DNA of 64,000 bases from Planoprotostelium fungivorum (lineage: Eukaryota > Evosea > Variosea > Cavosteliida > Cavosteliaceae). Shown here one piece after another: positions 3,195 through 62,643 of the stretch (position 1 is the first letter of the stretch; the number at the start of each line of letters is the position of its first letter). The notes under the pieces were generated by a model. The model searched no databases and was not told the origin of the DNA. It was given only the letters and a program-made list of their open reading frames with translations. The DNA is taken from assembly GCA_003024175.1 (NCBI GenBank), contig MDYQ01000124.1, forward strand, positions 1 through 64,000, read 5' to 3'. The translations under genes and the position numbers were made by a program.

Positions 3195-4636
3195 ATGAAG
3201 AGGGTGCTAATCACGGGGGCTACGGGTTTTGTTGGGAGGAGATTGATTCACGCATTGCAGGGAGACGACGTATACGTCGTGAGAGCTTTCTGCAGGAATG
3301 CGGCATCACTAGGATCTGACGAACCATCTGAAGTCTTTGAGGTGATCCTTCTGTGAAATGTCTCGACGACCATGTGTAAACATCGACAGGGTGATGTATT
3401 AGACATCGCATCGTTACAGAAAGCGGTGGAAGATGTCGATGTGGTGAGTCGAAGAGTTTGTCAGTGATTCTGAACATGATACAGGTCATTCACCTCGCAG
3501 CTGACATGGACTTCTTTCCAAAAAACAAAGAGAAGATGTATCGCACCAACGTGGAGGGAACCAGGTCAGACCATTATCAGTCACCCCATCTCTGAACACC
3601 TCTCAGGAACCTCGCCGATGCTTGCATTTCACACGGTCGAATCAAGAGGTTCGTCTACGTCTCCTCGACAGAAACATACGGAGCCGTCCAAAACGGTCCA
3701 GCCACGGAAGAGAGTGAATATCACCCTACATCAGGTGACCATCCACCTCCATTATCTTCTCCTCTGACGTAAGTGAGATTACGGAAGGAGTAAAATTAAA
3801 GCGGAGGACATGTTGAAGGAGAAAGAACTACCTCTCGTCATATTGAAACCAAGTGGTGCGTGAGACCCTCTCATCGATGTCGATCGCGATGTCACACCAA
3901 CAGGAATCTACGGACTAGGTGACGACTTTGTCATCTTCGAGATGATGCAGATGGTCCATCACGGCATCCTCTTCTTTGTCCCCGGAACAGGAGACTTCCA
4001 CCTCACTTTCGTCTTCATCGATGATGTCGTCGATGCCATCGTGAAGGTGATTCATCGCAATCATCGCACGACCACTCAACAAGTTGTAGAGTGTCGACCT
4101 CCACCGTAAGATTGAAGGAGAGAGCATCATACTGTGTTCAGACGACAAATGGACATACAGACAGTGGATATGTGGTACAGCTGATGCACTCAACCGGTGA
4201 TACGCACACATCAGCATCATCAAGTTCATCGATTGAAGAAGATGACGAGTCTTAACTGTGACAGGATACATCCTTTCATTCATCTCCCTCTGTCCATCTG
4301 TAAGACAGTCATCAAGCTCATCGGTCCCATCATGAATTTGGGAAAGAGGAGGACCTTCATGTTCCAACCTGAGACGATCGATCGCATGGCAGAAGGTGAT
4401 GATGACATCTTCCGTGCATGCCAACAGCTGACGAGATGGTAGAGAGGTGGTTCGATAATTCAAAGGCAAAGAAGATGTTGGGCTGGGCTCCACGAGTGAC
4501 GAACGAAGAAGGGCTGAGGAGGTGCACCGAGGCGGCTTTCAGAAGGGGGAAGTTGTGGAGGATGCCTTATTCTCCCGTGTCCGTGTTGCTCTTCATACTG
4601 ACGTTTCTCTTGGGAATAACGATGTTTGCACGATGA
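3195..4636 (+). CDS. NAD-dependent epimerase / 3-beta-HSD-type SDR with C-terminal membrane anchor
   Basis: It begins MKRVLITGATGFVGRR, the GxxGxxG dinucleotide-binding turn of extended SDRs. It continues with GDVLDIASLQKAVEDVD, VIHLAAD, YRTNVEGTRNLADAC, YVSSTETYG and, after an intron ending at about 3778, DYGRSKIKAE, which carries the catalytic Y-x3-K pair. LKPSGIYGLGDDF and FHLTFVFIDDVVDAI follow. The last exon ends in a hydrophobic helix (VSVLLFILTFLLGITMFA), so a membrane or ER attachment is likely. Family members act on nucleotide sugars, dihydroflavonols or 3-beta-hydroxysterols; the anchor and the LKPSGIYG region favour a sterol- or lipid-type substrate, but this is inference. Exon borders between 4040 and 4440 are uncertain. 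Confidence 0.8.
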
Positions 4637-4957: not shown

Positions 4958-7415
4958 ATGTCGGCCACCCTCCGTGAGTCCTTACCTCTCTTCTTCACCA
5001 ATCCGATCTCATGTAACCTCTTCACGAGCCCATCCGTGTTATGATATAATCTGATTGGGATGAATAGAGAACACCTACGGTGCAGTACCCGCCACCACTC
5101 GTGGTAAGCCAGTCGTAGTCAATGGAGACCCAAAGGGCGTCAACTTCCTCTACGCCACCGGAAGTTCCATCTTCATCCGTAGCTTGAAGGTGAGACAGTC
5201 GCTGAATCACCGTCTCGTCATGCTGATGGAGGTTGCATTAGGAGCCCCTCAAGACTGAGCAGTACACGGATCACCAGTTCTCAACGACTGTGGCCAGATA
5301 CGCCCCTTCTGGATTCTACATTGCCTCTGGAGGTACATCTACCATCGTTTGTCTGCGAAAACATGAGATTAAGACGTGATGCAGATTCTAGCGGTATCGT
5401 TCGCATTTGGGATACCACCCAGAAGGAGCACCTCTGCAAGCTGGAACTGAAGGTGAGAATGTCATGCATCTCCATTATCCCCTCTCATCCTCTAAAGGTT
5501 CTCTCTGGCCCCATCTCCGACCTGCAGTGGTCCGATGACAGCAAGAGAATTGTCGTCGTCGGTGACGGAAAGGAGAAATTCGGAGCCGTGAGTGCATCAC
5601 CTTCCATCTCCTTCTCATCCTCTTAAAGGTCTTCCTCTGGGATTCCGGATCTTCCGTCGGAGAAATCTCTGGCCACAGCAAGGCCATCGCTTCCGTCGAT
5701 TTCAAGCAGACCAGACCTTACCGCATCGCCACCGGTTCAGAAGATCTCGCCGTCAACTGGTTCGAGGGTCCCCCATTCAAATACAAGAAGTCCATGAAGG
5801 ATCATCAGCGTTTCATCACCTGCGTCAGGTGATGCATCATCCATCATCATCACGAACGTCCGAAATCTTTATTATTTTTTCTGATGGCGGGTTGTAGATT
5901 CTCACCCAACGGTGAGAAGTTGGTTTCCGTTGGAACTGACAAGATCGGAATCCTCTACGATGGAAAGACTGGAGACCCAGTCGGCAAGCTGAACCCCGAG
6001 GGAGGACACACCGCAGGTACCCTCTATCGACATTGCAGCTGTCGCTGACTGTGTCAGGTATCTACTCTGCCTCTTGGAGCCCAGACTCCAAGCAGATCTT
6101 CACGGCATCTGCTGACAAGACGTGCAAACTTTGGGACGCCGAGACCGGAAACTGCCTCAAGACCTTCACGGTCAAGCCGAACTCCCAGGTCCCAATTCCG
6201 TCCGTCTACAACGAGCTGACCCATCCAGGTGGAGGACCAGCAGTTGGGATCTCTGTGGCAGGGAGACACTGTCATTTCCATCTCTCTCTCGGGTGACATC
6301 AACTATTGGGACTTGAACAAGACCGACGCCCCCTCTCGCGTTGTTTTGGGACACCAAAAGTTTATCACCGGTCTGGCCTACGACGAGAGCAGCCAGAAGC
6401 TCTACTCTGGCTCTTACGATTCTCTCCTCGGTGAGTCCCAAATCCGTCCCCGACCCAAATTGATCTCCCGCCAGTCGAGTGGGATCTGAAGACGGGCGCC
6501 ACCCAGGCCTTCAAGGGCAAGGGACACGGCAACCAGATCAACCGCATCCAAGTGCAGGGAGGCAACCTCGTCACTGCCTCTATGGACGATACTATCCGTG
6601 TCACTCCTCTCTCTTCTCGCGAGTACTCTGCAGATGCCACAAAGTTGGAGTCTACACCCGTAGATGTCGCTGTCGCCAAAAAGTCCAACTTGGCCGTTGC
6701 CGTCAACACGACCAGCGTCGTGCTCGTCCGTGGAGGAAAGGTGGGGTAGTATTATTATTTCCTAAATCGATCTACAACGAGGCTGATGACGTCACAGGTC
6801 ACTCAGACTCATGCCGTCAAGTACCAACCCACCTCTGTCGCTCTCTCTGTCGACGAGACGAAGGTAAATTTCCGGGAATAATCCGTCTACAACGAGACTG
6901 ATTCGGTCAGGTGGCCGTGGGAGGCAAGGACAACAAGATCTACGTCTACAACGTGAACGGTGACAGTCTCAGCGACTCTGCCACTTTAGAAGGACACAGA
7001 GGTGCTCTCACCACCCTCTCCTTCTCCCCCGATGGCAAGTACCTCGCCGCCGGAGACTACCAGCGTGACATATTCATCTGGGACGTTTCCACGAAATCGG
7101 TGAGCCATTCATCTACAACCCGCCAGATCTAAATCCCATTTTCTCACATTATCGCACCAGATCAAGATCCAGGGCTGGGTGTTCCACTCTGCCAAGGTCA
7201 ACTCGGTCGCTTGGACGCCCGATTCTCTTCACTTGGCATCGGGATCGCTCGACGGCAACATCTTTGTGTGGAGTGTGGAGGACCCCACGAAGAGAATCCA
7301 AGTCAAGGGAGCTCATCAGGGAGGTGTCAACGTCGTCTTGTGGCTGGACAACCAGACCATCGCGTCTGCTGGACAGGATGCCACTGTGAAGACCTGGGTC
7401 GTGAAGCACCATTGA
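4958..7415 (+). CDS. aip1: Actin-interacting protein 1 (WDR1 family), WD40 propeller pair
   Basis: A short first exon (MSATL..., 4958-4973) joins to [16 protein letters not shown] in the exon at 5068. At least ten short introns follow. The product carries the AIP1 landmarks in order: [91 protein letters not shown] (the exon beginning at about 6227), [50 protein letters not shown] and [16 protein letters not shown] before the stop at 7413. AIP1 folds as two seven-bladed propellers and speeds cofilin-driven disassembly of actin filaments in the cytoplasm. Blade order and length, about 600 residues, match the family. Introns near 6200, 6770, 6886 and 7111 contain the TCTACAAC motif. Confidence 0.96.
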
Positions 7416-10523: not shown

Positions 10524-13500
10524 TCACAGATTCCCAGCCACCAAGTTGACCCTCTCGATGTCCATCGGATCCAATTCTAGAGGTAGATAGTCTCTCGCCT
10601 TCGCTGCCTCCGCCACAGCCCTCCTCGCTACATCGGGAACTGGCTCAGGTGACAGACTGCAACACATCAGTTCATCGTCCATCACGATCGAGATGATCAC
10701 GATCGTGAACTCACTCGTCAGGTTTGAAGGCTTCGATCATGTGCTTCAACTGGACGACGTTCAAGTGAGGGAAGATCTGCTCCGCCATTTCGGCATCGTT
10801 CACGATTGATTTGTCCATGACTAAGAAATTGACTGCATCTTTGATGTGATTCAAATGTTTGCTGATCCAAAGTCAGTCTTCAAGACACCATGTCGATCGT
10901 GATGATGGATCACCTGACGAAAGTGAGGGATTTGTCTAGTTTCTGGATGCCAGCCTCTACTTGAGACAGAGACATCTTGATCTGGAATCCAGCCGAGCAA
11001 GTGAACAGCTCGGGTCGCTATCACCCATCAGCTTCCCTCGATCTATTTTCGTCTCACCTGAATGAGGCTGTTGAACAGCTGGGCATCGATGAATACGAAG
11101 ACCTGCTTGACGAATTGTCTGACGAGTGATTCGGACAAGTTGTGCTTCTTTAACATCTTGAGTGTGCCATCGAAGAGGGTCGTGAACTCTGACACGTTGG
11201 CCGTCTTTCCCTTGTGGTTGGCGCTGCTCAGAACCGAAGAGATGAGGACGTTGTCCAATTGCTGTTATTTCGTCAATCTACAAGCAGCCTTTGGCGCGTT
11301 GTAGATGGACTCACGCTGAATATATTGATGAGTAGAACGGAGTAGATGTCAAAGGAGAGCATGATAAGTTCGTAGAAGAACCTCGTTTCAGGCTCGAGAT
11401 CAGCCTCGTCCTCTTCCAGCTTCTTGTCCGACAAGATTTGAGTATCTAAATCCAAATCGGGCAGCTCCGTCCTGAGAGTCTTGTACAAGTGTATCGTGTA
11501 GCTCAACCAGTACGTCAGGGTCTCGCTGTCGTACGCGCTCCTCTAGATTTAAGGTTTAGCGGGGCGAAATCTCGTCGGGGTTTTCTCACCGCGAAGCTCT
11601 TCTTGATGGCGTTGAGTAGAGCCGAAGTCAAGTCCTCGTCGATGGGTGTGAGGCTGTTCCACTCCAACATGCTATCTACAACGAACCGAACCCCCTTTGG
11701 TGCTTCGTCCTCGTACTCGACCTCTGATGCGTAGACACCAACCTCTAACATGTCCTTCTCTCGTATCTGCTTCTGCAGAGAGGCGACCTAGAAAGATCGT
11801 GAGAAGATTCTGAGAATATTCTGAGAAAATTCTCGCCTTTTTCTTCAACGTTTCGGATTCTTTCTCGGATCTTTTCGCGGAAATTTTCAGCTTCATGAGG
11901 GCTTCGTCGTCCATGTCTGTGTGGATTATAAATAGATCGGCAGGTTGTAGATGGACTCACTGGATGAAGCTGACATGGGGGATTTGGAGCCTTTGTCGGC
12001 TAATTCTGCCTTTAGCTTCTCGATCTCTTGAACCTGCTCGTCGATCTGCGACTGCAGCTTCGTCTGCGATCTAAAAATAGATCAGTCGCGAGGCGGAAAC
12101 GATTGAGACGATTCACTTTTGAGATGCGTCGTCGTTCTCTTCTTGGAACTCACGGAGCTGCTTCTCCACCTTTTTGAGTTGTTTCTCCAATTCTTTTGAT
12201 CTCTCCCTCTCCTTCTCCAGCTGACGACGTCATCACACAGAAATTCCCCAGAAATTTCTCACCTCGGCAGTGGATGCACCCGCCACGGCGGCGGCGGCGA
12301 CCGTTGTAGACGGAGTCTTCTTGATTTTGGCCATCTTTTCTTCCAGATTGCTGATCTCTTCTTCCTTCTCTTCCTTCTCCTCCTTCAACTTCTTAATCTT
12401 CGCCTTCAGATCATTCTTGTAGCTCTCAAAAGACGTCTCCATCTCCTCCATCTGCGTCTTCAATTCTTCCTATGAGAAAATCAGAATAATCCATCTACAA
12501 TTCGTGATGATGTCATGATTCATGGTGATGACGTCATACCTTCTCCGTTTTTTCTCGGATTCGATCATTCTCTGCTTCGGATAATTTCACTGCGAGGGTC
12601 TTTGATTTCGCTTGGGCCACGTCACCCTCAGTCGTGAGGTCTTCGATCTACAACCCGTCAGTGTCTCGTTGTAGACGCTCGTTCTCACTTTTTTCTTGAG
12701 TCGGGAGATTTCGGTGGAATCGGAGCCCTTCGCACTGCCTCGTGAGAATTCGAGCTCTTTCAGCTCTTCTTGTAGTTGGGTGACCTTGCTGTGACATCTT
12801 TAGAACACAGTGGCACCTCATGAACAATCACCGATTGAGGGTAGCCTCTGTCTCTTGACTCTGTTTCAAAGCCTCTTCGTTCTTCTTCGCCGTCTTTCTC
12901 AACTGATTTTTCTGTCATTTTTCCATCTACAACGGTGTAGATCTCACGGATGCAGCGTCCTTGGCCTCCGTCTTTGATTTTTCCAATTCCCTCTTCAATT
13001 GTTCGAGCTCTTCGCTCAGTGCCTCCACTTTATCCTCCAATTGATTCCTCTCCTTCTTCAAATGGGCCAACTACATCGTTGTAGACGGTCCAGATTTAAA
13101 TTCGATCCTATCTCTATTTTATTTCTATTTTATCTCACCTCTTCGGAATGGCCCGAATCTCCGTTGCTGACCGACTGCGAGAATTTTGGCGGGAAATCTT
13201 TCACAGAATTTCTCACCTTGCCCTCTTGGCTCTTCAGTTTCTCGATCTCCTCCTTCAACTTCTTCTTCTCTTCTCCCTCTTTCTTCAGCTGTCTCGTCAA
13301 CTCTTCCATTTTGTCCTCTATATCTTCCTTCTCTTCTGCGAGGTCTTTCATTCGCTCCTGCAATTCGGCCATGGCAGCCGAATCGCCGCTGAAATTTCAG
13401 AGTCATTTCTCAGAAATTTCAGTGAAAATTCACCCCTCTGATCGCTTCCCTGGGCTCTTGAGGCTATCGATCTCTTCTCTCTGCTTCTCCACCTGAAATT

Positions 13501-14632
13501 TCGCGTCACCGGATGAACGGAAGACCCTCCATCTACAACGAGGCAAATCCTCACCTTCTTCTCCAACCTGGCCTTGTCTTTCCTGAGGTCCTCCAATTCG
13601 GCGGCATTTGGCATGGACCTCTCACTCTCCATCTTCTCTATCTTTCTCGTCAGCCTCGCATTATCCTTCTTCAGGTCATTCAACATGGCTTCCTGTCCCA
13701 AAATGAGTCGGACGGGTCCCAAATTTGACGAATCAACTCACGTTCTCCATGGAAACTTGGGAGGGGGAGATAGCTAGAGAAGCTCTCGCCGATGGAGCGC
13801 CCCTCATGGTGCCTGTTTTAGAAGGCACAGAGTCTTCATCAGGGAAGCCATCGTCCTCTTCTCCATCCGAATGAGTGCCGTTGGTCTCCGACATCTGTTC
13901 GAATTTGAGCGGGAAAGGATGATGGATGGACATCACCTCATCGGATGTCTGGAGTTGGTAGCTCTTACCACCGATCTCGACTTTCTCTTTACTCTGAGCG
14001 GATGCATTCTCTGTGACTGGCACGAGTGATTTTCCCGCCACCTGCACTGTGTCACCTCCATCGCGATGGAACATGTGAATCACCTTGGTTGGAAAGGATT
14101 CGATCTTAATCATGAGCGTTCCACTCTTCTTCTTGTCCTTGTTCAAGAGGGTGACAGACTCGTGACGAATGGTGTTGGGTTCTGCATATTGTAGGAGATC
14201 GATCTTTCCCTTCGACACTGCATCTGCCTTCTTTCTTTTGTCCTCCTGTGAGAGTTGAGATCCGTGTGTCACATTATCGTCTGTCGAATCACCTCCATCA
14301 GAGAGAATAGGAGTTCTTTCTTGGGTTCGATCTTGTTTCCCTTCCTCTCAAAAGACGCGTTGATCTGTAGCTTCTCATCGATGGGGTGGTCTTTGTCTTT
14401 GATGAGTATCCTCTTTGAACTGAGATGATTATTGGGTTTCTTTCCCCTCTTCAGGTCGATGTACACTTCTTTGCCATTCGTATTGGCTGGGATGTCCTTC
14501 AGAGAAATCAGAGTAATGGCTGACGAACGTTAAGGATGATGATATGCAATCGGTGGCTGCAGAATGAGAGATCGAAGAAAGGATACTGAATTGCACTTTG
14601 AAGGCATTCTCCTTATTCTTCTTTTTAAACAT
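10524..14632 (-). CDS. NT-C2 / long coiled-coil / DIL (dilute-type) domain protein
   Basis: It starts MFKKKNKENAFKVQF and, after an intron, continues TITLISLKDIPANTNG and EVYIDLKRGKKPNNH. RKKADAVSKGKIDL and KSGTLMIKIESF follow. This is the NT-C2 domain seen in EEIG1/EHBP1-type proteins. A Ser/Asp/Glu-rich linker comes next (13780-13960), then a long coiled coil from about 13700 to 11700, rich in Glu/Lys/Leu (for example MAELQERMKDLAEEKEDIED). The C-terminus has the DIL-type helices of myosin V tails (ETRFFYELIMLSFDIYSVL, HNLSESLVRQFVKQVFVFID, AQLFNSLI) and ends VNLVAGNL at 10524. NT-C2 domains bind membranes, and DIL regions bind cargo or cytoskeletal partners, so a membrane-to-cytoskeleton tether is likely. 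No motor domain is present. There are many introns, and several contain ATCTACAACG or its complement. Confidence 0.8.
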
Positions 14633-14923: not shown

Positions 14924-16894
14924 ATGATCTCTCTCAGAAGACTACTACCTCTTAACATCAGCTCAGGCGTAACACGTTCATTCCAGGTTCCTACAACCAG
15001 AGGTGATTTCGATCGTCGTATGTTGCATTTTAATGGATGTCAAGCGCCCGTTCGCCTGCAATCTACGGCTTTAACACCCACGTCAAGATCTGGATCATTC
15101 ATTCGAAACAGATGTTGTTGTGCAGCTCACAATAATGAACCTTGTGAGGACATCGTGATGTCCATCTGATTGAAGGAAAGCAGTGATCGCGATGGATCAT
15201 CAGACCATCGGTAAATCGCAGGAGCTCTTCATGTTGGATAAACACAGCCCAGGTGAATCATATCTCACAAACCCATCCCCTCAATCACCTCAGGCAACGT
15301 CTTCTTCCTACCAAATGGTACCAAGGTGTTCAATCGTCTCTTGTCTTTTTTGAGAGAGCAGTACGTCAAAAGAGGTTACGATGAGGTACCCTGTCGACAT
15401 CCATGTTCCATTGACATGGCGTAGGTGATCACGCCCAATGTCTTTAACACGGAGTTGTGGAAGACATCAGGTCATCTCGAGAACTACAGCGACGACATGT
15501 TTCGCGTAACCGGCGCCAGGTGATCTTCAAATCCGTCCATCTACAACCCGCCAACACCGTCCAGCCACAAGGTCGACGAAGGAGACCAACACGAGTACCT
15601 CTTAAAACCCATGAACTGTCCATCGCACTGTCTCATCTTCAGACACAAGGCGAGAAGTTACAAGGAGCTCCCTCTCAGGATGGCAGATTTCGGCGTGTTG
15701 CACAGAAACGAATTGTCAGGTGCTCTCACTGGTCTCACTCGCCTGAGAAAATTCCACCAAGATGACGCACATATCTTTTGCAGGAGAGATCAGGTGGGGC
15801 GATGAGGGAGGGGGAGGGGCGGGAGTGACTCGTTGTAGATCAAAGAGGAGATCAAGGACTGTCTCGATTTCATTTCCTTCGTTTACGGAAAATTCGGATT
15901 CCAATTCAGGCTGGAGCTGTCCACTCGTCCGGAGAAATTCATCGGAGAAATATCCGTTTGGGACAAGGCCGAGGCGGTGAGTCCCAATTCGAGTTTCCCG
16001 CCAATTCTTCCAGGAACTCAAAGAAGCTCTCGATGGTTCGGGCTTGGGCTGGAAGCTGAACGAAGGCGACGGAGCCTTCTACGGTCCAAAAATAGACATC
16101 CACATCTCCGATGCTATGAATAGGAGCCACCAGTGCGCCACCGTACAGCTCGATTTCAATCTACCAGAGAGATTTCAATTGGAGGTGAAATGAGAGATTC
16201 CTCGTTGTAGAATGACACAATTCAGTACGCTAACGAAGACAATGTACTGGAGAGGCCTGTCATGATTCACCGTGCTATATTGGGATCTGTTGAGAGAATG
16301 ATGGCCATTCTAATAGAACACACGGGGGGAAAGTGAGATCTACATCGTTGTAGATGGAGCTGAAAAGGGTAGGTGGCCCTTCTGGCTGTCACCTCGACAG
16401 GCCATCGTGATTCCAGTTTCAGCTACTTACGGGCAATACGCGGAAGAGACAGCGGAGAAGATGAGAAAGGCTGGATTCCACGTCACTTGTGATTTGACCG
16501 ATAAGACGATGCAGAAGAAGGTGATTCACACGTGATCTTCATCATCATCATCTCACGATCTTCGATCACCTTTGATCATCTTTGATCACCTTTGATCATC
16601 TGTGTCATCGATCATCACGACGATCAGATTATCACATCAACAGATCACATGATCACATATGATCACTTCACCACGATCGTTCAGCTGACACTCCACCAGG
16701 TAAGAGAAGCACAAGTATCTCACTACAACTACGTCCTCGTGGTGGGAGAGAGGGAGCTGAAAGAAGGGACTGTAGCTGTTCGTGACCGAGAGGGTCGCAA
16801 CCAGGGAACGATGCCACTGGACAGATTGATCGCGGCCCTCAGATTGTCCGTTGATACGCAAGAAGAGCCACAGCTCAGCACACCAAAGGCATAA
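14924..16894 (+). CDS. Mitochondrial-type threonyl-tRNA synthetase, no editing domain
   Basis: Exon 1 (14924-15143) encodes a basic, Ser/Arg-rich presequence ([20 protein letters not shown]). It splices over a 40-nt intron to exon 2 at 15184, in frame with [21 protein letters not shown]. Class II ThrRS landmarks follow: [52 protein letters not shown] (motif 2), [32 protein letters not shown] (motif 3) and a C-terminal anticodon-binding domain ([19 protein letters not shown]). The TGS and N2 editing domains of cytosolic ThrRS are absent. The protein goes from presequence straight to the catalytic core, like the yeast mitochondrial enzyme. It charges tRNA-Thr, probably in mitochondria. The last intron (about 16520-16699) is unusually long and rich in TTTGATCA repeats. 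Confidence 0.92.
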
Positions 16895-22767: not shown

Positions 22768-24816
22768 ATGAAGTCACTCTCTCTCCTTCTCTTCGCATGC
22801 CTTCTGACCGTTGCCTCTGCTCGCCCTGCAGCCTTCCGTAACTCTGTGCCTGTGGACGGAACAGGAAGCAGACGCCTCGTGGAGGACATCGGCGATCATA
22901 CTGTCTCTCGCTCTGTCAAGTTCTTACCTCAGCTAGTGCTCTTGGATGAGGTAAATCTCCCGCTGCACAAAGACGTACAGACTCACTGTCTCACAGGTTG
23001 ACGAGCTCCTCTCTCTCACTTGTTACGGCCCCGACAGATTCGTCCTCGTCTTCAATGCTTCCGTGCCCTCTTGGACGAATAACTTTCCCGTGTTGGGAGG
23101 AGCCGAGTGGGGCTGTGTCGATGACGAAGGAAAGGCCGTCTCCCCCTCTCTCTACGTTCTCAACGTCACCGTACAAGGTCACACGGTCGAGTTGACGGGA
23201 AGGAGGCCCGAGCTCGATGAGGTCTACGAGTCATTCAGCATGAACTTGGCCAGGGTAAGTTCGAGCCAATTCTGAAGATCTGATCGAGGCAGAATGAAGA
23301 CAAGAAGAGAGTGTCGGCTTCTGGTTCGTTCAACGCCGGTAGCTTCAACTACGATTACCAGACGGGCAGTGCTATATCCACCATCCCTCTCTTCTACCAA
23401 GACTGTCTCTCGAATGATCTCAGCCCTAAAGCGGAAGAGTTCTGTCAGCTGAACGGCAAATTGTCGAACAACATCACGTGCACCAACTGCTTCACCCACA
23501 ACCAATTGAGCATCACGATCAGTTTCGGACTATTCGATGGTCTAAATTTCTATGCTTCTGGCTCTCTCAATCTTCACGCAGAATTCGACCTCGCTGTTCC
23601 TGCAGAGGTAAGACATTCACATTTCGACGTGACTCACCTCGATAGATTGTCCGTGAAGTAGAAATCATGTCACGCAGCTTGCCCCTCACTGGTATTCCTG
23701 ATTTCGGTGCCGTCAGCTTCGGAGGCTTCTTAGACATCAAGCTCACGGCCCTCGTCGGCTGGCAGAATCAAGGCAATCTCCACGGCGGCTTCGACATGAA
23801 CGTCAACTACGGTCTCAACAATTGGACTCCGTACAACAACCACCAATTCCAGCTGATCAAGCCCACCGGTTCTCAAGGAGGAGGTGAAGACGTAAATTGT
23901 GTCAGTTACACGTTTGTGACTTGAATTTAGACGCGAGATTCCGTTTGACGTTCACCGTCGGTCCTGCCTTCCGGATTCGGGCCTTGGGCACCACCGTTGT
24001 AGACACGAGCATCACTTTCAATCCTTGGGTTGAAGTTGACGTCGGTTTCGCTGTGTCTCAGCCGTTTCCTGCCCTCGCTACGGTCCCCACGGCTTCTGAC
24101 AGTTACCTCTACGATGCCTCTTACGTCTCTGCTTGCTATACCGATCACTACCTCAACTTCAATGTGCCATTCGGTTACCAGGTCATTTTATTCATCTACA
24201 ACCAGACATCAACTGACGACCACAGACGATCTTCGTGCTGAAGGGATGGGCTGTCCCTGACAAGACCGTCACTTTGCAGAACTACGTCAGCGTCAAACCA
24301 CTCGCTCAAGGCTGTCTCCTTCCCGCAAGCTCTCGCATCATCAAGCAGATCCAGTTCTTGTTCGACAAAGGCGTCGTCATCCGCAACAACAACGTGACCA
24401 CTCAGACTTTCGTCAGTCTCTTCCTTCAGGATCTCTCCTTCGTTCTGAAAGACAAATTGGTCGCCGGTGTCGATGTATCGTTCACCTTGGTGAGTGTCCG
24501 CCCGCATCTCTTTATATTGACGTAGATACAGAACAGTGGAGGTCACGTGGAGGTCTCTGTCGTCGTACCCCAGGGCTCTGACTTCAATGATTCCAACGAC
24601 CAGTACGCCAGATTATCGCAGCTGTCGCGCGATCCTTCTTCCCTGAGAGATAATGCAAGATCTTCCCAGATCAGCCGATTCCTGGTGGCAAACGTACCTC
24701 CCACAACGGCCAACCCCGAGGAGACGTACAACCTCCTATCTTCATCCGCAGCCGTGTCCCATTCTATTCCCCTTGTCGCATTGGTCTTGGCATCCACTAT
24801 GGCTGTTCTATGGTAA
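22768..24816 (+). CDS. Secreted, probably GPI-anchored beta-rich glycoprotein
   Basis: It begins with a signal peptide (MKSLSLLLFACLLTVASARP) and ends in a hydrophobic tail behind a Ser/Ala stretch (SSSAAVSHSIPLVALVLAST, then MAVLW). That fits a GPI-attachment signal. Between them lie many short exons coding a Cys-bearing extracellular region with N-glycosylation sequons (FNASVP, LNVTV, NNITC, NNVTT). Segments such as AWGCVDDEG-like and FGGFLDIKLTALVGW alternate like beta strands. About 600 residues in all. The fold recalls lineage-specific secreted fungal and amoebal proteins of unknown role, and no enzyme signature was found. It follows the other secreted protein by about 1.1 kb on the same strand, which may reflect a co-expressed surface or matrix locus. 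Exon borders near 23610-23680 and 23890-23935 are uncertain. Confidence 0.75.
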
Positions 24817-28724: not shown

Positions 28725-30792
28725 TTATACACTTTCGGCCACCAGTCCCTTCTCCTCCTTGGCCATGCCCTTCCTCTTCCTCTTCACGACCACCTCTACG
28801 ATGATGGAGATGACAGAAGAGAAGATGAGGACGATGCCCAACACCATCAAGAAGTTTGATGAGACCATCGGTGGTTTCCTCATGTACCTGTGCCACCGTC
28901 AATTTACAACGTTGTAGATGGTAACCCTCGCCTCTGTTTCAGCCAGAAGGAGCAACCGAAGGAGATGATGCCCAGTAGGATGAGGGATATCCTTACCCCC
29001 CAGTGGATCTTTTTGGTAAAGATACGAGTCTCAGGCTCCATTACAGCGTGGAGCCTCTGGTACATTCTAGATTTCTGCACCAGTGATTCTCTCTCCACTG
29101 CCTCTAATTTGCTCTGCAGATACTGTAGCTGTGTGCGGAACTGTCGCAGATCAGCGACGTCTGGAACCTGCAAATGCGTCCCACCTCCTGCTGATCGTGC
29201 ATGGAGCTGAGGCGATGTTGTTTGAAACCTTCTATGATGACCGGAATAATTTCGCTGTAGCTGACGGACAATATCCCGGTCACGGGATCAGTGTGTACGA
29301 CCTGTCTCACGTCACTCGAGTTTTCATCGAGTTTTAATCACCTCAGGCAGCACGCGTTGCACCTCTTGAGCTATGAGGCCGATGACTCGACCTGGGCCGA
29401 CCTGCATCGAGTTGAGTGACAGATCACAGTCTTAGATGATACCTCCTGCTCGAAACATCCCTCCTTCCACTGATAAGACTTTCCCTCCAACTTCATGACC
29501 GTGTCCAACGCGTCGGCCAACTCTTTGATGTCCGTCTTCAATCGCTGATCTGAAAACTGCGAACGCGTGAGGAGAGACGCGAGGGGAGAGACTCACCTGC
29601 ATGAAGGCTTGACCTCTAACGGTTCCGTGGACTTCTAAGTTGCCGTGGATGACTGAGATCCTCTCTTCTTCTCCGCTGATCTCGTTTCTTCTTCTCTTCT
29701 CGCTGTAATGTCCACTGCAAGACGGATGAATAAATTGAATTAAAATAATATCGTAATTATTCGCATGATGATGATGGTCAGAGACATACCCTTCGACTAC
29801 GTCTGAGATTCCTCCACTGGTGCCGATGTCGTCTTCTGGAGGTTGAGGGAACATGCCTGGAGGTCCCGTTGCATCTGATTTAGATTGCTTGCCGTTGTTG
29901 TGAGAGCAGAACTCGATCGTCCTTCCTTTCTGAGGACCCAGAGAGGTTTGAATGGTGACGATAAACTGGCAACGCTTGAAGTATTTAGACAACTTCAGTT
30001 CGAGTTCGGTCATGTATGGACTGTCGATGTCGGAGGTTTGTTGGACTTCGAAGCCTGAGATGGTGAGCACGATGTAGAACGATGGATGGTGGACGTACCT
30101 TCTTTCGTGGACACGGTCGTCATCAGATCATGGAGGACGATATCGACTGCGTCTTTGTTGAATTGAATGTTGGTCTTGATCTGGACTTTGAGCCTCTTTC
30201 CTTTTCCTCTCGTAACACGCAGACCCGCTCCAGGTGGGATGGGCTGCCATACACCTTGCGAACCTCTCGGCTTGTGAAGTAATATGACCTCTATCTTGAC
30301 GTCCCTGCGAGATGGTCAGTCTCGATCGACATCGTTCATTCAAGTGTGAGCTCACTTGGCATCTGTTGCAGTGGGTAGATTAGATCCACCATAAGATGAA
30401 TCTGAACTAGGCGAATAGGGTGAACCAGACGAGAAATCAGTGGCATCATCTGTGAAGGAAGGAAGAGCTGTGAATTGTGATGGTGTTATCTTCGATGAGA
30501 AGTCTAGCGACTCTGAGTATCCTCCGTTTGCTGCCATGTTGTATTGTCTCTTGAAGCGATTGTCATCGAGGACGATATCTTCATTGTTGACCACCAGAAA
30601 CGAGTTGTTGTTAGACTGTCTGCCCGGCATGAATCGATTTGGCATCCCTCCGTACGGTGACTGATCGATCATCGTGAACTGATTCTGAGGGGTTCCACCA
30701 TTTCCAAAGTCCATAAAGGCATCGGCGAACTCAAAGTCCCTCCCTGGCATGCCTCCACGATTTGCGTATAGAGTGTTCGACTGTTGTTCCAT
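28725..30792 (-). CDS. mrfA: MYRF/MrfA-type membrane-tethered transcription factor
   Basis: A Gly/Asn/Ser-rich N-terminus (from MEQQSNTLYANRGG) leads into an Ndt80/PhoG-like DNA-binding region (KGKRLKVQIKTNIQFNKD, RCQFIVTIQTSLGPQKG, RTIEFCSHNNGKQSK). The intramolecular-chaperone auto-processing domain follows: HYSEKRRRNEISG, ISVIHGNLEVHGTVRG, FSDQRLKTDIKELADALDTV, LEGKSYQWKEG, VIGLIAQEVQRVLPEV and LSVSYSEIIPVIIEG. A coiled segment and a transmembrane helix (GVRISLILLGIISFGCSFW) come next, then a second hydrophobic helix (NFLMVLGIVLIFSSVISIIV). In this family the trimeric ICA domain cuts the protein at the ER so that the DNA-binding half enters the nucleus. The order Ndt80-ICA-TM is diagnostic. 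The last intron is only about 38 nt and holds the near-palindrome ATTTACAACGTTGTAGAT. Confidence 0.9.
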
Positions 30793-37390: not shown

Positions 37391-39482
37391 TCACTTTTGT
37401 TTCTTCGTGTAAGCGTTCTGCTTGGTGGTCGTCTTTGGTTTGGGAATTCGATCAGGTGAAGGGGGCCACTTGAAACATGTCAATGTCCATGTCCCGTTCA
37501 TCGTGTCCACCTTCACATCGTGTCTCTCCCCCACGTAAACCGGAAAACGAGGTATCCCAGCGTCAGACAACTCTTGGTAACGGAAGGTAATGATAGAACC
37601 TATGGCCGGCGGGTTCTTTCTATCCTTCGTATTCATGCTGCTCGGGTCAGAAAAAACACATCCATCCGACAGCCGACAGACGATGTTTAGACGTGATGTT
37701 TCTGTCTGACTCACCCCGACCCAACAGAAAACTTGGTTCCATCACCGATGTCACACCACAGAGCTCCACACATGCCACTGAACTTGCCCTTCCCTGGCTC
37801 GTGGGCCAACACCTTTGCCTCTGCATCGTAAAAGTTTTTCACTGTGCGACATTCAATTTCCTCCTCTTTTCTTCTCTTCCACCTTTCAAGAGAGTTCGCG
37901 ATCGCTGCGGCTCGTAATGACTCCCCGCCTCCCTCAACATGAGGCCCTCTCCTCCCATGACTTCGACTGCATTCAAGAGTGTCTTCAAGTGTTCGTGCCC
38001 CTCACATTTCTAAGACGGCGGGTCAGCGTCGCATCATGATGTGATGACGAGGCACCTCTTGTTCGTGCAACGTGACGTAGCGACACTGTCGTGTCTGAAG
38101 ATATTGCCTGATCGCCTCCATCCTGTCCTCGAACGTGCCGGGGAGGCTGGGAGCATCAAAGACTGTTCTACGTCAGAGATGTCGTGGAAATTTCGGCCTC
38201 ACCCTTGTACTTCAGCTTGGCCCAATGTTTCGTGCCCCCTCCCGTCCTCACCACCGATACCGTCGCTTGGAAACATCTTACTACGTAAATCGAAATTTCG
38301 ACGAGATTTCGACGACATTCACCTCCTCTCGATCCACAGCTCGCCATCCAATTTCATATCCAGTGGTAGTTCCTCTCTGAAAAAGTCTGGTGGACAAAAC
38401 TTGTTGCCCAATCGTGAGATCAAGTCTTGACCATCCCAGTAGGCTCTGACTCCATCCAATTTCTCGGAAATCCAATAGCCGGTGGGATCGGTCTACAACG
38501 ATTCAATCGAATGAATCATAAGGTTTCACCTCTAATGTCCACTTCTCTGCCAGGATGATAGGTGGTCTTGGTTTCTTGTCTTTCTTTTTCCCAGGTTTTC
38601 CCTCCTTCTCAGATGCAGAGGTCTCTTCTCCTCTGTCAACATCATCGACGTGTGGATCGCTTGCCTCCTTCTTTTCGTATGCGTCATCTTTCGGACGAGT
38701 CCTCCTTTCATTTTTCATCATCTGATCTCTTCATCTTCCTCACTTGGTCTCGTGATCTTGACCCAGATAAGAGATCAGATGCTTGCACGTTTTCTTCTTC
38801 CAGTCGCCCGGGGTATATTTCCAAGCTTCACAATCGCACTGGTAGACATCACCGTGTCTCTCTAATCGGTGATTCATGTGATGGGCAGAATCTCCATCTT
38901 TCAGATCAGTCGGCTATTGGAGGATGAGTGCGATGATGAGATAGGCCTAACCTTTGACTTCTTGTTGGACGATTCTGTCGATGAGTCGTGAGGTCGCTTC
39001 TTGTCTTCAACTGAACATGGGTCATGGATGATGTGATCGATGAGTTGAATACCTTCGACAGAGAATTCTTGACCTCCAGGTAAAATGAAAACATCTCCTT
39101 TGTGTAAGTTGATCTGTAAGCGATCAGAGCTGAGACGACGATCGAATGATACTTTGGAATCACGACTCAGTGTTGTCTCTTGGCCTTCTTTCGGAATGAT
39201 TTGTATGGGATTGTTGGCGCACTGCTGGTGTCAAGAATCAGCACGTTAATCTCCTTACATTTTCGATGCGGATCACTCCATCTTGAGCTGTAAATACTCT
39301 CGCTTGTTTCCTGGAGCAGATTTTATCACTAACCTTCTCCAAAACACCAATCCCTCTTCCCTGGACGAAACTCAGAACTCGCTGGTATTCGTATCGATCA
39401 CCAGGATGACTTCGGTGTCTAAAGAGATCTCGTCTCGGCTCTGTTTGTGTCTGATGAACGGCATGTTGTTGTCGATGCCCAT
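37391..39482 (-). CDS. FHA - SWIM zinc finger - ATP-dependent DNA ligase fusion
   Basis: Start at 39482 (MGIDNNMPFIRHKQ). Exons splice to an FHA domain of PNKP/APLF type: TEVILGRGIGVLEKVSDKIC, SRKQARVFTAQDGVIRIEN, then CANNPIQII and INLHKGDVFILPGG. A linker leads to a SWIM-type zinc motif (YQCDCEAWKYTPGDW, KKKTCKHLI) near 38780-38830. After a Lys-rich linker comes the ligase core: SEKLDGVRAYWDG holds the Lys that takes AMP, followed by LISRLGNKF, ELDGELWIE and GGEGLMLRE. The C-terminal OB-type domain contains IITFRYQELSDAGIPRFP. FHA domains read phospho-Thr, often on XRCC1/XRCC4. The protein should therefore join DNA ends within a damage-signalled complex, probably in the nucleus. Ligase and SWIM assignments are firm; the FHA assignment rests on the GRG and SRKQ pattern. 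Confidence 0.85.
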
Positions 39483-51340: not shown

Positions 51341-53257
51341 ATGGCTCTCAATACACCTTCGAAGTCTTCTTCGCCTTCGGTGATGAGCTGAAGAGGAGAG
51401 CCGAGAACCGAATATCGGCCGTAACAAAAGACAGTGGACCCATGGTGATCCCTTCATGCATCATCATCTCATTCCAACACGTGACACTGTCCAGGAGGAA
51501 GAGAAGAACGAAGTGTCCACGCTCATCGATGGTCTCACCGTGGAATTATTACTCCACATCGCTGCAGAAGAGTATGCCTCTGCTCTTCACCGTCTGAACC
51601 GAAGGAATATCACCGTGATACCAGGCGCCAGTTATCTCTCTTCTCCCGTACTGCAGGTGAAAATGGCAGGTTGTAGATGAACGAAATTCATATTGGCAGG
51701 TGGCATCTCTTCTATCGAATTTCTCCGTGTCAGAGAACAACGCCGCCGGTCAAACACAAGCGGCTTCTCTATTGAGAACGGGTGACATTTATTCTATTTT
51801 ATTCTTCTCACGCGATGCAGGTGTACCCAGCGAGCTCCACCTCAAGTACGCGGACGTATTAGCCACGCTCGCTCGCCTGAAGGAAACAAACCAAGCCAAC
51901 ATGCACATCATCCAGAGTCTATTCCTCGAAGCCAGTCACCTCTACAATCGAGCCGCCCAGCCCGGTGAAACCTCCATCTACAACGCTGTAGATTGACTCC
52001 CTCAGGCTTCTACATGCACGAGAACGTCTTACGCTACAGCGGAGACTGCCTCGTCGATCTGTCTCGAAAATATCCATCCGAGAGAGGACAAGAGCTGTTA
52101 GAGAGGGCGTGCAGCAAATACGAGGAGTCCCTCTCTGTCAACCCACAGTATTTCATGGCTCACTATTACTACGGCAGAACACTTCACCTCTTGGCGAACG
52201 CGAGGAAGGGAACACCGACGGCAGACGAGACGTTCGTGAAGGCCATCGAAAAGTTCAAGCAGGCCAGACTCATCAAAGCCGATGACGTGTATCTCATCTA
52301 TGAAGATGCTTCTGTCTTGCAGGATTTCGCGCTGACAAAGAGTGGAAGGGAGGCCGAGGAGCTGTTCAATCGAGCGGCGGAGAGGGTGAGTCGATCTACA
52401 CCGTTGTAGACGGCTGAAATGAGTAGTACGAGGAAGCGCATGAGCTGGCGAGAGATGACGCGTGGATCCTGCGAAATTGGGCGGACTCACTGTACGAGCA
52501 CGTCAAGCTCATCTTCGCACAGATCGAGGACTGCGAGAGCGAGATGGGCTACGAAGGTGACAGCGACCATCGTGATGGCCATGTCTAAAGACGTATAGAG
52601 CAAGAAGGCGATTGGGGTATGGGTAGATCGGAGGAACTGATGCAGCTCATCAACTTGGCCTGCGAAAAGTACCAGATGGCCGTCAACATCAACAACAACT
52701 ACACGAACGCCTTCAACTCGTGGGCTCTCGCCTTGTCTACGAGAGCCAAGATGGGCTGGTCCATCGAGGCATCGAGGTGATGTATCATCCGATATCACAT
52801 CACATGATTCATCCTCTATAGAGATTACTTCCGGGCGGCCTACGAGAAGTTTGAACGAGCCATCGCCACTCGTTCAGACGGCTCCAACATCGAGATCTGC
52901 AATTGGTCTATGACCCTCATATCACAAGCCATCAAAGAGGCCAAGTTCATCCTTCGCAGCCGCGGCCAACCTCTATCGCGTCCGTCGGTCCTCCTCCTCC
53001 TCTGTGAAGACGAAGCATGCCGCTCCCTCCTTCGCATGGCGAAGGCGAAACTGCAGGGCCTCCTCTTAAAGAACGACACGTGGTGCTTCTTCTGCATGGC
53101 GAGGTACTACGCCGCGAAGGGAAAGGGAGACAAGTGCAGAGAGTGGCTCGAGAGGTGCCATGCGGAGGGTTATCTTAAGAGGGCGACCCGCTGGCAGCTC
53201 TCCTACTTTGATAACGTCCGCGAGGCCGACTGGTTCAAGCGATGGACTCACCAGTGA
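51341..53257 (+). CDS. Tetratricopeptide-like helical repeat protein
   Basis: The start at 51341 (MALNTPSKSSSPS) is tentative. Later exons give HIAAEEYASALHRLNRR, DVLATLARLKETNQANMHIIQ, then TPR-like helix pairs: CSKYEESLSVNPQYFMAHYY, EKFKQARLIKADDVYLIYED, RNWADSLYEHVKLIFAQIED, ACEKYQMAVNINNNYTNAF, NSWALALSTRAKM, RAAYEKFERAIATRSDGSNIE and ARYYAAKGKGDKCREWLERC. Stop at 53255. The alternation of small and aromatic residues at TPR positions is clear. These proteins are protein-protein scaffolds. Introns at about 51970 and 52390 contain 18-nt near-palindromes of the recurrent motif. Confidence 0.72.
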
Positions 53258-59782: not shown

Positions 59783-62643
59783 ATGGAATCTGACGCGATC
59801 AACTCTATTGTTGAACACTGGAAGAGTGCGTTGTGAACATGCATCATTCGTTCTCATATGATGTCAGAGATCAATCTCGATGGACGAAGGGGAGAGTTGG
59901 ATTCTCAAGCGGCTGAAATCGCTTCTGGTAAAGAGGCCAACGCAGTGATTCGAAAGAAATTAGCCGAACAGACAAGAGGTATGAGGCATCTCGTACGTCA
60001 TACATATACGTCCATCTTCTTTTCATGCGAGCGAAGAGACGGAATCCCTGATGATATCGTTGCACAGATTTCCGTAAGACATCAGATGAGGAGAAAGTCA
60101 AGAGCTTCGGTGTCCTCTTGAAGGCATATCAAGAGGAAATCGATCGATTGACAAAGAAGAGTAAATTCGCAGAGCACTCATTCTTATCCGTCTATCAAGT
60201 TTTGGCCGAAGCGCCCGACCCGTCGAAAGGCCTCTCCGCGTTACAAGTGACCCTCACCATCTCCATATGACATCCATCATCACCATTCCAAGTTCGAATC
60301 ATTCACATTGTGCAGGAAGAAACACATCGATCGGGCAAGATCGTCGACTTAGAGAGCGAAAACAGAAAGTTGAGAGCCGAATTGGACAGTTTCAAGCGCG
60401 AGTTCTCGGGAGTCAAGAACCAAGAGGTCACCATCCGCGCATTAGAAGATCAGCTCAACGAATACAAGCAACAGGTATCTACAACGTTGTAGATCGTCGC
60501 AAAACATTGAAACGCGACAGACCGAGGCAGTTATATCCGAGAGGATCAAAGGAAGCGAGAGACAAGTTGCAGAAGAGAGACAGAAGACGATCGATGCGAT
60601 GAATGAGAGGTGCGATGATGATCATGAGTACGTCATCTGAAAATTTCCAGAGAACAAGAGACGAGGCGAGCACTTCAGGCGAGTCAAGAAGAGACAGCCA
60701 GGCTACAGAGGTCACTCGACACGGTGCAGAACGAGTACGACGACCTCAGATCACGATTCGGTGAGAGATTTGATGACGTGGCGTGACGTCATCGATGAAT
60801 CTTCTGACTCGTTGTAGAGGAGAAGACGGGGGATAGACAGAGCGAGATGGACATGTTGGTGCAAGAGGTGGAGGAGAACAGGCACAGGATCGCACAATTA
60901 TTGAGAGAGAAGGTGGATGTCGTCTACAACTCGTCCACACTGAAAGAACGACAGGAGATATTGAGCAGTGGTGTCGTCGCTACATCAAGGTATCGTCCTC
61001 TCGATTTTATTCTATTTTATTGTTTAGAGCGTCTCACGGTGGACACAGAGACGGATCTTCCCCTGATTTAGAATTAGAATTGGCGAAGAAAGATATCGAA
61101 TTGTCTCAGCTGCGTGATCACACGAAGAACGTAGAGAAGACTCTATCATCGGAGAGGAACACGTCACAAGCCGAGCTATTGAACAGACAGACACGTATCG
61201 AGTCCCAGGTCAGTCATTTTTTTCACATCCATAGAGGATTAAAATTGCACAGGAGAAGCAGATTCATGCTTACGAGGAAGACTTGAAGACCAGGCCGACA
61301 CAGCAAGAGTACGTCAAATTGAAGAGACAACTGCAAGTGTTGAAGGTATGACGAGTCGTGACGTCATCACTGACTCGTTGTAGAAAGCCACAGAAAATGC
61401 CGACGATAATGAAATCGACCCCGATGAAGAGCTTCCTTCCCTCGAGAAAATCTTCAAGGAGAAAAACAAGAAATTGGAGACCGAGAACATGAGAGCGAAG
61501 GTTTGGAGGTCACGTGATCTCTACAGTCTGACGTGTACAGGCCACAGTGCAGACATTAGAGGAACAAGTGTCCACCCTGCGTAACAAATTGGCCGAGACC
61601 GAGGCGAATGAGACGAGGCTCAAACAATTGGTCCACAAGCTGGAAGAAGATATATCGCACGGTTCGAATTCGAGCGAAATTTCGGGGCAGATTTCCGTTG
61701 TAGAGGAGATCATGCAGCAGCCTGCCGTGGTGAGGAGATTTCGCGTGGATTTCGCGTGGAGTTGACGGAGTACAGGGGAGGAAGGTGTCGGAGGATAATA
61801 CGGTGCTGCAGGTGGTGACGAACCAGAGAGATCGATTCAGAGGAAGGATCAGAGATTTAGAAGAGGTGACATCATCACATCATCACATCATCACATCATC
61901 ACATCATCACATCATCACATCATCACATCATCACATCGTCACATCACAGCATCATCCGTCCACCATCACATCATCACATCACTTGGAAGACATCACACCG
62001 AACGTCAACTCATCCACACAACTGAAACGACATCAGGAGACGAAAGGATTACATTCAAAGATGCAACAGAGAGAACAAGAGATCGACACCTTACGAACAG
62101 ACAACGTCAAATTGTACGAGAGAATCAGATACCTCCAGAGCTACAGCAATTCATCTTCCGGGGCCAATCGAAGGGTGAGATAGACACGGTACACGGCGTG
62201 TGATACGTAACAGGGCGGCATGATCGATATAGAAGCGGGTAAGACGGATTTAGATGCAAAGTATTCTCCACTGTACGAAGATTCGGTCAATCCATTCACA
62301 TTGTTCAATCGAAAGGTGAGACGATCGCGATCGTGTCGATGGTGCGATGATGTGATGACGATCGATCCGTGTGATGTCTATATGGACGTCGATGCGATCG
62401 TCATCATCGTAACATCATCGTCTTAACGATGCTGATGATGATGAACAGGAGAAGTACCAGAGATACAAAGACTTGAACCCAGCAGAGAAGGTGATTCTCA
62501 ACGGAGGCCAGTTTCTATTGTCGAACAAAGTGACGAGAACCTTCCTCTTCTTCTATTCGGTCCTCTTGCACCTCCTCGTCTTCATTTCCCTGTACAGAGC
62601 CGCCACCACCTCCGCAAACACAACCGTTGTAGAACACCAATAG
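59783..62643 (+). CDS. CASP, Golgi tail-anchored coiled-coil protein
   Basis: The N-terminus (MESDAINSIVEHWK then INLDGRRGELDSQAAEIAS, VIRKKLAEQTR, FRKTSDEEKVKSFG) aligns with the conserved CASP start, in which FWKRFDL is followed by KELD..A.EIA...E.S...RKKL.EQ.R. A long coiled coil follows (HRSGKIVDLESENRKLRAEL, TEANETRLKQLVHKLEEDI). The C-terminus is diagnostic: YSPLYEDSVNPFTLFNRKEK, YQRYKDLNPAEKVILNGGQF and LLSNKVTRTFLFFYSVLLHL, a tail anchor. CASP is a golgin-like protein involved in intra-Golgi retrograde transport. An intron at about 61866-62000 holds an ATCATCAC microsatellite, and another (60476-60520) the perfect 18-nt palindrome. Confidence 0.92.
60477..60494. repeat. Perfect 18-nt palindrome ATCTACAACGTTGTAGAT (motif type copy)
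   Basis: This site in a CASP intron is the perfect version of a motif found many times in the window. Others close to it are 12925-12942, 13069-13086, 16338-16355, 28902-28919, 51976-51993 and 52394-52411. Single arms occur at, for example, 1465, 6770, 6885, 7111, 11297, 11674, 11943, 13531, 15539, 15831, 24194 and 57143. Confidence 0.85.
61870..61944 (+). repeat. ATCATCAC microsatellite inside a CASP intron
   Basis: An 8-bp unit (ATCATCAC) is repeated about nine times. Related ATCATC sequence continues to about 61980. It lies in an intron of CASP. Confidence 0.85.

What the first reader, a model, noticed from the sequence alone, without database searches (positions are those of the whole stretch)
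60477..60494. A recurrent 18-nt palindrome, ATCTACAACGTTGTAGAT, populates introns across the window
By hand count the 8-base core TCTACAAC or its complement GTTGTAGA appears about 39 times in 64 kb. A random 8-mer counted on both strands would appear about twice. Roughly three quarters of the copies are in introns or non-coding gaps, in genes on both strands and in both orientations relative to transcription. Seven sites (12925, 13069, 16338, 28902, 51976, 52394, 60477) have both arms joined as a near-perfect palindrome, and others have arms separated by 10-20 nt (for example 11275-11306 and 12646-12676). Several introns use GTTGTAG as their 3' splice site (5891, 17354, 60811, 61377). The 38-nt last intron of the MYRF gene is little more than a donor, the palindrome and an acceptor. 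Possible explanations are a minimal intron-generating element, an intronic splicing or transcription signal, or a DNA-binding protein site. This is the least explained pattern in the window.
Basis: seen in the sequence. Interest (0 to 1): 0.82.

Follow-up and report, generated by a model that had tools for sequence, protein, structure and literature searches.

The report
Recurring intron DNA motif in a protist
A short, almost unchanging DNA word, sometimes doubled into a mirror-image palindrome, sits inside about one in eight introns of this stretch of a compact eukaryotic genome, in either direction, and looks more like a landing site for an unknown DNA-binding protein than an ordinary splice signal.

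Summary
GTTGTAGA/TCTACAAC occurs 41 times in 64 kb against 2.0 expected (order-2 Markov). With gene models built here, 28 of 41 copies lie in introns, 11 in exons and 2 between genes; introns are 15% of the window. All seven palindromes named in the finding are intronic. Intronic copies share an extended site, YRNMNS-GTTGTAGA: 23 matches in the window, all intronic. It occurs about equally in both orientations (15 sense, 13 antisense), and one-mismatch copies are rare in introns. Seven introns end in it; motif introns otherwise have ordinary splice-site scores and lengths. Introner ancestry is weakly supported: one motif-intron pair of 325 matches at E<=1e-5, over donor plus motif. Orientation independence, sharpness and a bipartite or palindromic layout fit a site for a sequence-specific DNA-binding protein acting inside genes. 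That is inference. Rivals are an RNA hairpin or splicing element and relics of a minimal introner. No other sequence of this genome could be searched, so genome-wide counts and conservation are untested.

The parts
60477..60494 (.). Perfect 18-nt palindrome, in intron 60475-60520 (46 nt, + strand) of the CASP/CUX1-like gene g25
12925..12942 (.). Palindrome in intron 12912-12947 (36 nt, - strand) of the DIL-domain gene g05
13069..13086 (.). Palindrome with 1 mismatch to TCTACANCGNTGTAGA, mostly in intron 13071-13138 (- strand), at its 3' end
16338..16355 (.). Palindrome in intron 16333-16372 (40 nt, + strand) of the threonyl-tRNA synthetase gene g06
28902..28919 (.). Palindrome with 1 mismatch, in the last intron 28888-28925 (38 nt, - strand) of the MYRF-like gene g13
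51976..51993 (.). Palindrome in intron 51965-52005 (41 nt, + strand) of TPR-like gene g20
52394..52411 (.). Palindrome in intron 52386-52426 (41 nt, + strand) of g20
5885..5898 (+). Extended site; its TAG is the 3' splice site of intron 5829-5897 (AIP1-like gene g04)
6205..6218 (-). Extended site, antisense in intron 6189-6228
7112..7125 (-). Extended site, antisense in intron 7100-7160
11292..11305 (+). Extended site, antisense in intron 11262-11314; second arm 17 nt away (CTACA at 11278)
11938..11951 (+). Extended site, antisense in intron 11917-11960
12647..12660 (-). Extended site, 3' splice site of intron 12648-12688; paired with the next site at arm distance 17
12662..12675 (+). Extended site, antisense in intron 12648-12688
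13532..13545 (-). Extended site, sense in intron 13493-13554
15540..15553 (-). Extended site, antisense in intron 15520-15564
15826..15839 (+). Extended site, 3' splice site of intron 15794-15838
24195..24208 (-). Extended site, antisense in intron 24182-24225
38492..38505 (-). Extended site, 3' splice site of intron 38493-38529 (DNA ligase-domain gene g16)
51664..51677 (+). Extended site, sense in intron 51657-51699
60805..60818 (+). Extended site, 3' splice site of intron 60761-60817
61371..61384 (+). Extended site, 3' splice site of intron 61346-61383
4083..4090 (+). Core 8-mer without the left-half rule, 3' splice site of intron 4047-4089
6771..6778 (-). Core 8-mer without the full left-half rule, in intron 6741-6797
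6886..6893 (-). Core 8-mer without the full left-half rule, in intron 6864-6910
11675..11682 (-). Core 8-mer without the full left-half rule, near the 3' end of intron 11672-11738
16204..16211 (+). Core 8-mer without the full left-half rule, in intron 16185-16225

Best explanation
The motif is one half of a bipartite recognition site of about 14-18 bp, read in double-stranded DNA by a sequence-specific DNA-binding protein. The fixed half is (C/G)GTTGTAGA, often followed by YGGA. The other half is either an inverted copy (giving the palindrome TCTACANCGTTGTAGA) or a looser word of the form YRNMNS. The sites lie inside gene bodies, nearly all in short introns. Shown here: excess, intron location, orientation independence, sharpness, extended consensus, palindromic subset. 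Inferred: that a protein binds, and that its job is intragenic regulation (an orientation-independent transcriptional element, or a bound obstacle that paces polymerase and co-transcriptional splicing). In 7 introns the TAG of the site is also the 3' splice site, which I read as economy in introns of about 45 nt and not as its main role.
For: 28 of 41 copies in introns that make up 15% of the window. 15 sense and 13 antisense among the 28. CGTTGTAGA 20 and GGTTGTAGA 7 times in introns, all other 26 one-mismatch forms together 7. Intronic copies have S at -1, M at -3 and R at -5 in 27 of 28 each; YRNMNSGTTGTAGA has 23 matches, all intronic. Splitting the window at 17 kb, 10 of 10 later intronic copies fit the rule against 0 of 10 exonic or intergenic ones (P 1e-5; the rule was written after seeing all sites). 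In the seven palindromes one half is always the exact 8-mer, P 0.003 if both loop-side positions were free and bases equally frequent. Single-site genes exist (g03, g10, g13, g16), so pairing between introns of one transcript is not required. TGACGTCA, recalled as a bZIP/CREB site, shows a similar intron bias (11 intron, 3 exon, 1 intergenic).
Against: The full site is absent from intergenic DNA, where an ordinary transcription factor site would be expected, and no motif intron is the first coding intron (0 of 26 vs 27 of 176, P 0.029). The core CGTTGTAG is in excess between genes too (6 vs 0.28), 4 of 6 followed by T or G, and the 8-mer is in excess in coding sequence (11 vs 2.0 by synonymous shuffle), so the bare core is not purely intronic. 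Palindromic introns fold more stably than shuffles (mean z -2.1) and other motif introns somewhat so (-1.1, against -0.3 for the rest), as an RNA element would. No protein, no conservation and no expression data were available.
Confidence: 0.42

Rival explanations
1. RNA element: the palindrome forms a hairpin (7-bp stem, NCGN loop) in the pre-mRNA, and single copies act as a splicing element or acceptor, tuning recognition of very short introns.
For: Palindromic introns have MFE z mean -2.13 (7 introns), other motif introns -1.08 (19), the rest -0.32 (176). Seven introns end in GTTGTAG. The full site is confined to introns. Two further introns have inverted arms 17 nt apart.
Against: Thirteen of 28 intronic copies are antisense. 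Donor, acceptor, exon-length and GC values of motif introns do not differ from the rest. Intron 13071 does not fold into the hairpin (z 0.08), and by eye the sense RNA of 28888 has a C-A mismatch in the stem. One half is always the exact 8-mer, which a free loop would not need.
Confidence: 0.22
2. Introner-like origin: the palindromic introns descend from a minimal mobile element of about 40 nt or an 18-24 nt inverted-repeat seed; single copies are partly decayed relatives.
For: Introns 12912 and 16333, in different genes, match over 26 nt from the donor (E 1.3e-7); 28888/51965 (E 1.9e-5) and 16333/52386 (36 nt reaching both acceptors, E 2.0e-5) come close. Motif introns cluster: 17 of 55 in g03-g06, 9 of 147 elsewhere (P 1.3e-5, region chosen after looking; per-gene overdispersion P 0.030, adjacency P 0.025). 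Phase 0 in 18 of 26 vs 85 of 176 (P 0.058). Known introner-like elements can carry inverted repeats or a central palindrome (PMC8469720, PMC7789003, passages).
Against: One of 325 motif-intron pairs reaches E<=1e-5, over donor plus motif, stopping 10 and 14 nt before the acceptors. Position and orientation of the motif within introns vary. No length increase (median 44 vs 46). Near-miss copies are rare where decay would leave many. The full site has no intergenic copy.
Confidence: 0.18
3. By-product of splice signals or base composition: branch point plus TTGTAG acceptor and CAT/GAT-rich sequence create the word.
For: 7 of 28 intronic copies are acceptors, three of them as TGACTCGTTGTAG. CAT/GAT triplet runs are the two 8-mers more frequent than the motif in the window.
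Against: Thirteen of 28 are antisense and many are mid-intron. Intron composition predicts 0.15-0.27 copies wholly inside introns against 21 seen. One-mismatch forms are rare.
Confidence: 0.05

Closest known systems
Intronic DNA-binding-protein sites in intron-mediated enhancement, such as YY1 sites in the human UbC intron (PMC3680475, passages) and first-intron hexamers of Arabidopsis (PMC8157754, abstract and outline)
   Same: Short defined words inside introns that may bind a trans-acting factor.
   Different: Those studies concern a 5'-UTR intron or first introns; no motif intron here is the first coding intron. The word is unrelated as far as I can tell, the site here occurs in both orientations across many genes, and no effect on expression was tested.
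Introners and introner-like elements, including internally symmetrical stwintrons (PMC9860276, PMC8469720) and Amoebophrya introner elements (PMC7789003); passages
   Same: Repeated sequence in introns of unrelated genes, inverted-repeat or palindromic structure, short lengths within the reported range (median 30-654 nt).
   Different: Similarity here is mostly the motif, not end to end; orientation and position vary; the core is sharply conserved while the rest is not.
CREB/ATF-type palindrome TGACGTCA (recalled)
   Same: A palindromic word with a central CG that is also intron-biased in this window.
   Different: Different sequence; only its intron bias was measured here.
THAP11/ZNF143 promoter motif with ACTACAA (recalled, no call)
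   Same: Shares the string CTACAA.
   Different: A promoter motif of animals; the rest of the sequence and the location differ. Probably coincidence.

Membership tests
Introner / introner-like element | Intron-intron similarity (E<=1e-5) that begins near both splice boundaries (criterion of PMC9860276, passages) | tested here: not met
   One of 325 motif-intron pairs reaches E<=1e-5 and it stops 10 and 14 nt before the acceptors; the pair that reaches both acceptors has E 2.0e-5. Only 64 kb could be compared.
Introner / introner-like element | Recent gain: motif intron present in one lineage, absent at the same place in relatives | not testable with these tools
   No genome or relative held; pattern scans of viral and prokaryote collections gave no relative.
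Core splice signal (3' splice site or branch point) | One orientation and a fixed position in the intron | tested here: not met
   15 sense, 13 antisense; 7 at the acceptor, others at varied positions.
Sequence-specific DNA-binding protein site | Strand symmetry relative to transcription and a sharp consensus | tested here: met
   15 vs 13 in introns; one-mismatch forms rare.
Sequence-specific DNA-binding protein site | Bound by a protein | not testable with these tools
   No binding data.
Promoter transcription factor site | Enriched upstream of genes | tested here: not met
   Full site: 0 intergenic matches of 23. The bare core CGTTGTAG is in excess there (6 vs 0.28), mostly without the A.
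Intron-mediated enhancement motif | First or promoter-near introns | tested here: not met
   0 of 26 motif introns are first coding introns; introns in untranslated leaders were not modelled.
Known structured RNA | Match to an Rfam family at the gathering score | tested here: not met
   0 matches in the window.

The most novel reading that the evidence does not exclude
This protist carries a genome-wide intronic DNA code: a dedicated binding protein marks about one intron in eight (26 of 202 here), in either orientation and away from first introns, to control elongation and co-transcriptional splicing of groups of genes. Some 36-41 nt introns are little more than donor, protein site, branch point and acceptor.
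Probability: 0.2. Interest if true: 0.85.

Novelty: new variant of a known kind. Interest (0 to 1): 0.6.

Why it matters
Introns of compact genomes are usually taken as filler between splice signals. A sharp, orientation-independent site confined to introns would mean that introns of about 45 nt carry regulatory DNA, and it gives a ready probe for the protein that reads it. If it marks a minimal introner instead, it would lie at the short end of those known. Either outcome bears on why intron-rich compact genomes keep their introns, and a whole-genome count plus one binding or RNA-seq experiment can decide it.

Tried and rejected
The first gene-finder run over-split the window (up to 1155 introns) and was replaced by one with proper length and transition costs. 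An unconstrained EM motif search drifted to purine-rich sequence and was discarded. Exact motif patterns gave 67, 88 and 10 stretches in viral contigs and 2 in genome contigs. The ten hits have near-identical flanks that look like one phage gene. Of the 167 fetched loci two are denser in the 8-mer than the window: a 4.1-kb contig with five copies and a 1.4-kb one with a single copy; the first was looked at only for the flanks of its copies. No relative of the window was recognised. A paper search for motif letters (1,646 papers hold at least one of three strings, 25 listed) brought listings that look unrelated. Shared-word controls drawn from exons and intergenic DNA re-sampled the same places and were not used. 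Rejected: low-complexity artefact and plain 3' splice consensus; branch point (14 of 19 motif introns that do not end in the motif have a separate branch-like sequence, 138 of 176 others do); Rfam RNA; tRNA (bacterial-code scan). Similarity of introns within a gene, with motif words left out, was significant at k=8 (P 0.001) but not at k=9 or 10 (P 0.16, 0.56; 177 of 202 introns used, repeats of g17, g12 and the end of g04 dropped), so gene-wise intron copying was dropped.

Full report
Observation. GTTGTAGA/TCTACAAC occurs 41 times in the window (23 and 18). An order-2 Markov model on both strands expects 2.0. Only two CAT/GAT-repeat 8-mers are more frequent, and together with the overlapping CGTTGTAG it heads the list of 8-mers ranked by excess.

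Gene models. No genome was available, so I wrote a small gene finder (codon usage, splice-site weight matrices, intron length). It gave 28 genes and 202 introns, median 45 nt. Names rest on (threonyl-tRNA synthetase; AIP1/WDR1; DIL and NT-C2 domains, S74 domain in the MYRF-like protein, TPR-like, CASP/CUX1, DNA ligase domains); others are read by eye. The model g04 joins the AIP1 gene to an ankyrin-repeat gene and is probably a false fusion. All nine motif-intron junctions of ThrRS and of the AIP1 part fall inside the stretch aligned to solved structures; several have small gaps within a few residues, and the one at ThrRS residue 82 lies in a clearly gapped stretch. With codon usage trained only on genes without the motif and splice matrices only on introns without it, 26, 26, 26 and 25 of the 26 motif introns were kept at four settings. 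The organism may be a protosteloid amoeba; that rests on recall of similar ankyrin-repeat proteins and was not tested.

Where the motif is. Of 41 copies, 28 are in introns (9,873 nt), 11 in exons (39,840 nt) and 2 between genes (14,287 nt). The retrained models give 29, 11 and 1 at three settings and 27, 11 and 3 at the harshest. 26 of 202 introns, in 9 of 27 intron-bearing genes, carry the 7-mer core. The 11 exonic copies exceed a synonymous-codon shuffle (mean 2.0, largest of 300 shuffles 6) but none has the extension described next. CGTTGTAG is also in excess between genes (6 vs 0.28), in 4 of 6 cases followed by T or G.

The real unit. All 28 intronic copies of GTTGTAG are followed by A; 27 of 28 have C or G before it, 27 have A or C at -3, and 27 have a purine at -5. 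The site YRNMNSGTTGTAGA occurs 23 times in the window, all in introns; 5 of the 28 intronic copies do not fit it. Splitting at 17 kb, 10 of 10 later intronic copies fit and 0 of 10 exonic or intergenic ones do; the rule was written after seeing all sites, so this is a consistency check and not a blind test. One-mismatch neighbours of CGTTGTAGA in introns, apart from the G variant (7), add up to 7 against 20 exact copies. The palindrome is the case in which the left half is an inverted copy, arms 4 nt apart. Each of the seven keeps one exact half.

What it does not do. Motif introns do not differ detectably from others in donor score, acceptor score, length, GC or flanking exon size. Orientation relative to transcription is even. 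So it is not a plain splicing signal, though 7 introns end in it. No motif intron is a first coding intron (P 0.029), and motif introns cluster in neighbouring genes (17 of 55 in g03-g06, 9 of 147 elsewhere; P 1.3e-5 with the region chosen after looking; per-gene overdispersion P 0.030, adjacency P 0.025).

Origin. I applied the published introner criterion as far as 64 kb allow (PMC9860276, passages). One motif-intron pair, 12912 and 16333, passes E<=1e-5; the match is donor plus motif and ends 10 and 14 nt before the acceptors. The pair 16333 and 52386 runs to both acceptors at E 2.0e-5, and 28888 and 51965 match over 24 nt at E 1.9e-5. This keeps the introner reading alive for the palindromic subset but does not establish it. 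The other ten pairs at E<=1e-5 involve gene duplicates, repeats within one gene or overlapping exon flanks (my reading of the listing).

Reading. Even strand use, a sharp core, a looser but defined second half and an inverted-repeat subset are what a DNA-binding protein site looks like. Confinement of the full site to introns argues against an ordinary promoter factor and leaves an intragenic regulatory role or an RNA role; the lower folding energy of motif introns speaks for the latter. I put the DNA reading at 0.42, an RNA element at 0.22, introner relics at 0.18 and a compositional by-product at 0.05. A second palindrome, TGACGTCA, shows a similar intron bias (11, 3 and 1), which makes a general regulatory use of introns more plausible; I recall it as the consensus of CREB/ATF-type factors.

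Literature. Searches on Planoprotostelium or Protostelium with introns, introners with palindromes or amoebozoans, the motif letters, palindromic intronic motifs, and intron-mediated enhancement and polymerase pausing showed me no report of this motif. In some searches only part of the matching papers was listed, so absence from print is not shown. PMC10639083 (passages) reports 265 minor introns in Protostelium aurantium and says nothing of this motif in the passages seen.

Noticed in passing
37343, 47655, 50593, 58610: Four intergenic CGTTGTAG copies are followed by T or G instead of A, two in convergent and two in divergent gaps between predicted genes; possibly a related but distinct site.
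   Followed up: partly
introns at 1029, 6741, 12470, 49140, 49408, 49605, 56366, 57419, 60761, 61346: TGACGTCA, a palindrome recalled as a CREB/ATF site, is intron-biased (11 intron, 3 exon, 1 intergenic); three of these introns also carry the GTTGTAG core.
   Followed up: partly
introns at 51782, 56704, 60990: Three introns of different genes share 14-16 nt of TTTATTCTATTTTATT; intron 13071 holds a similar A/T-rich stretch in the other orientation.
   Followed up: no
8310-10059 (+) and 27084-28335 (-): Two ankyrin-repeat gene copies in opposite orientation share an identical 47-nt intron with its 20-nt flanks (87 of 87 nt); one copy has a 93-bp tandem repeat array at 8891-9215.
   Followed up: no
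61866-61949: An 84-nt predicted intron is mostly an ACATCATC microsatellite.
   Followed up: no
40357-45558: Large leucine-rich-repeat-like gene with internally duplicated exons and introns (six intron pairs at E<=1e-5) and 20 introns, none with the motif.
   Followed up: no
window: GGCGGGAA occurs 11 times against 0.8 expected, spread over introns, exons and intergenic DNA; it resembles an E2F-type site (recalled).
   Followed up: no
53603: An intergenic CTACA-N3-TGTAG inverted repeat, close to the intronic palindrome but with a 3-nt centre.
   Followed up: no
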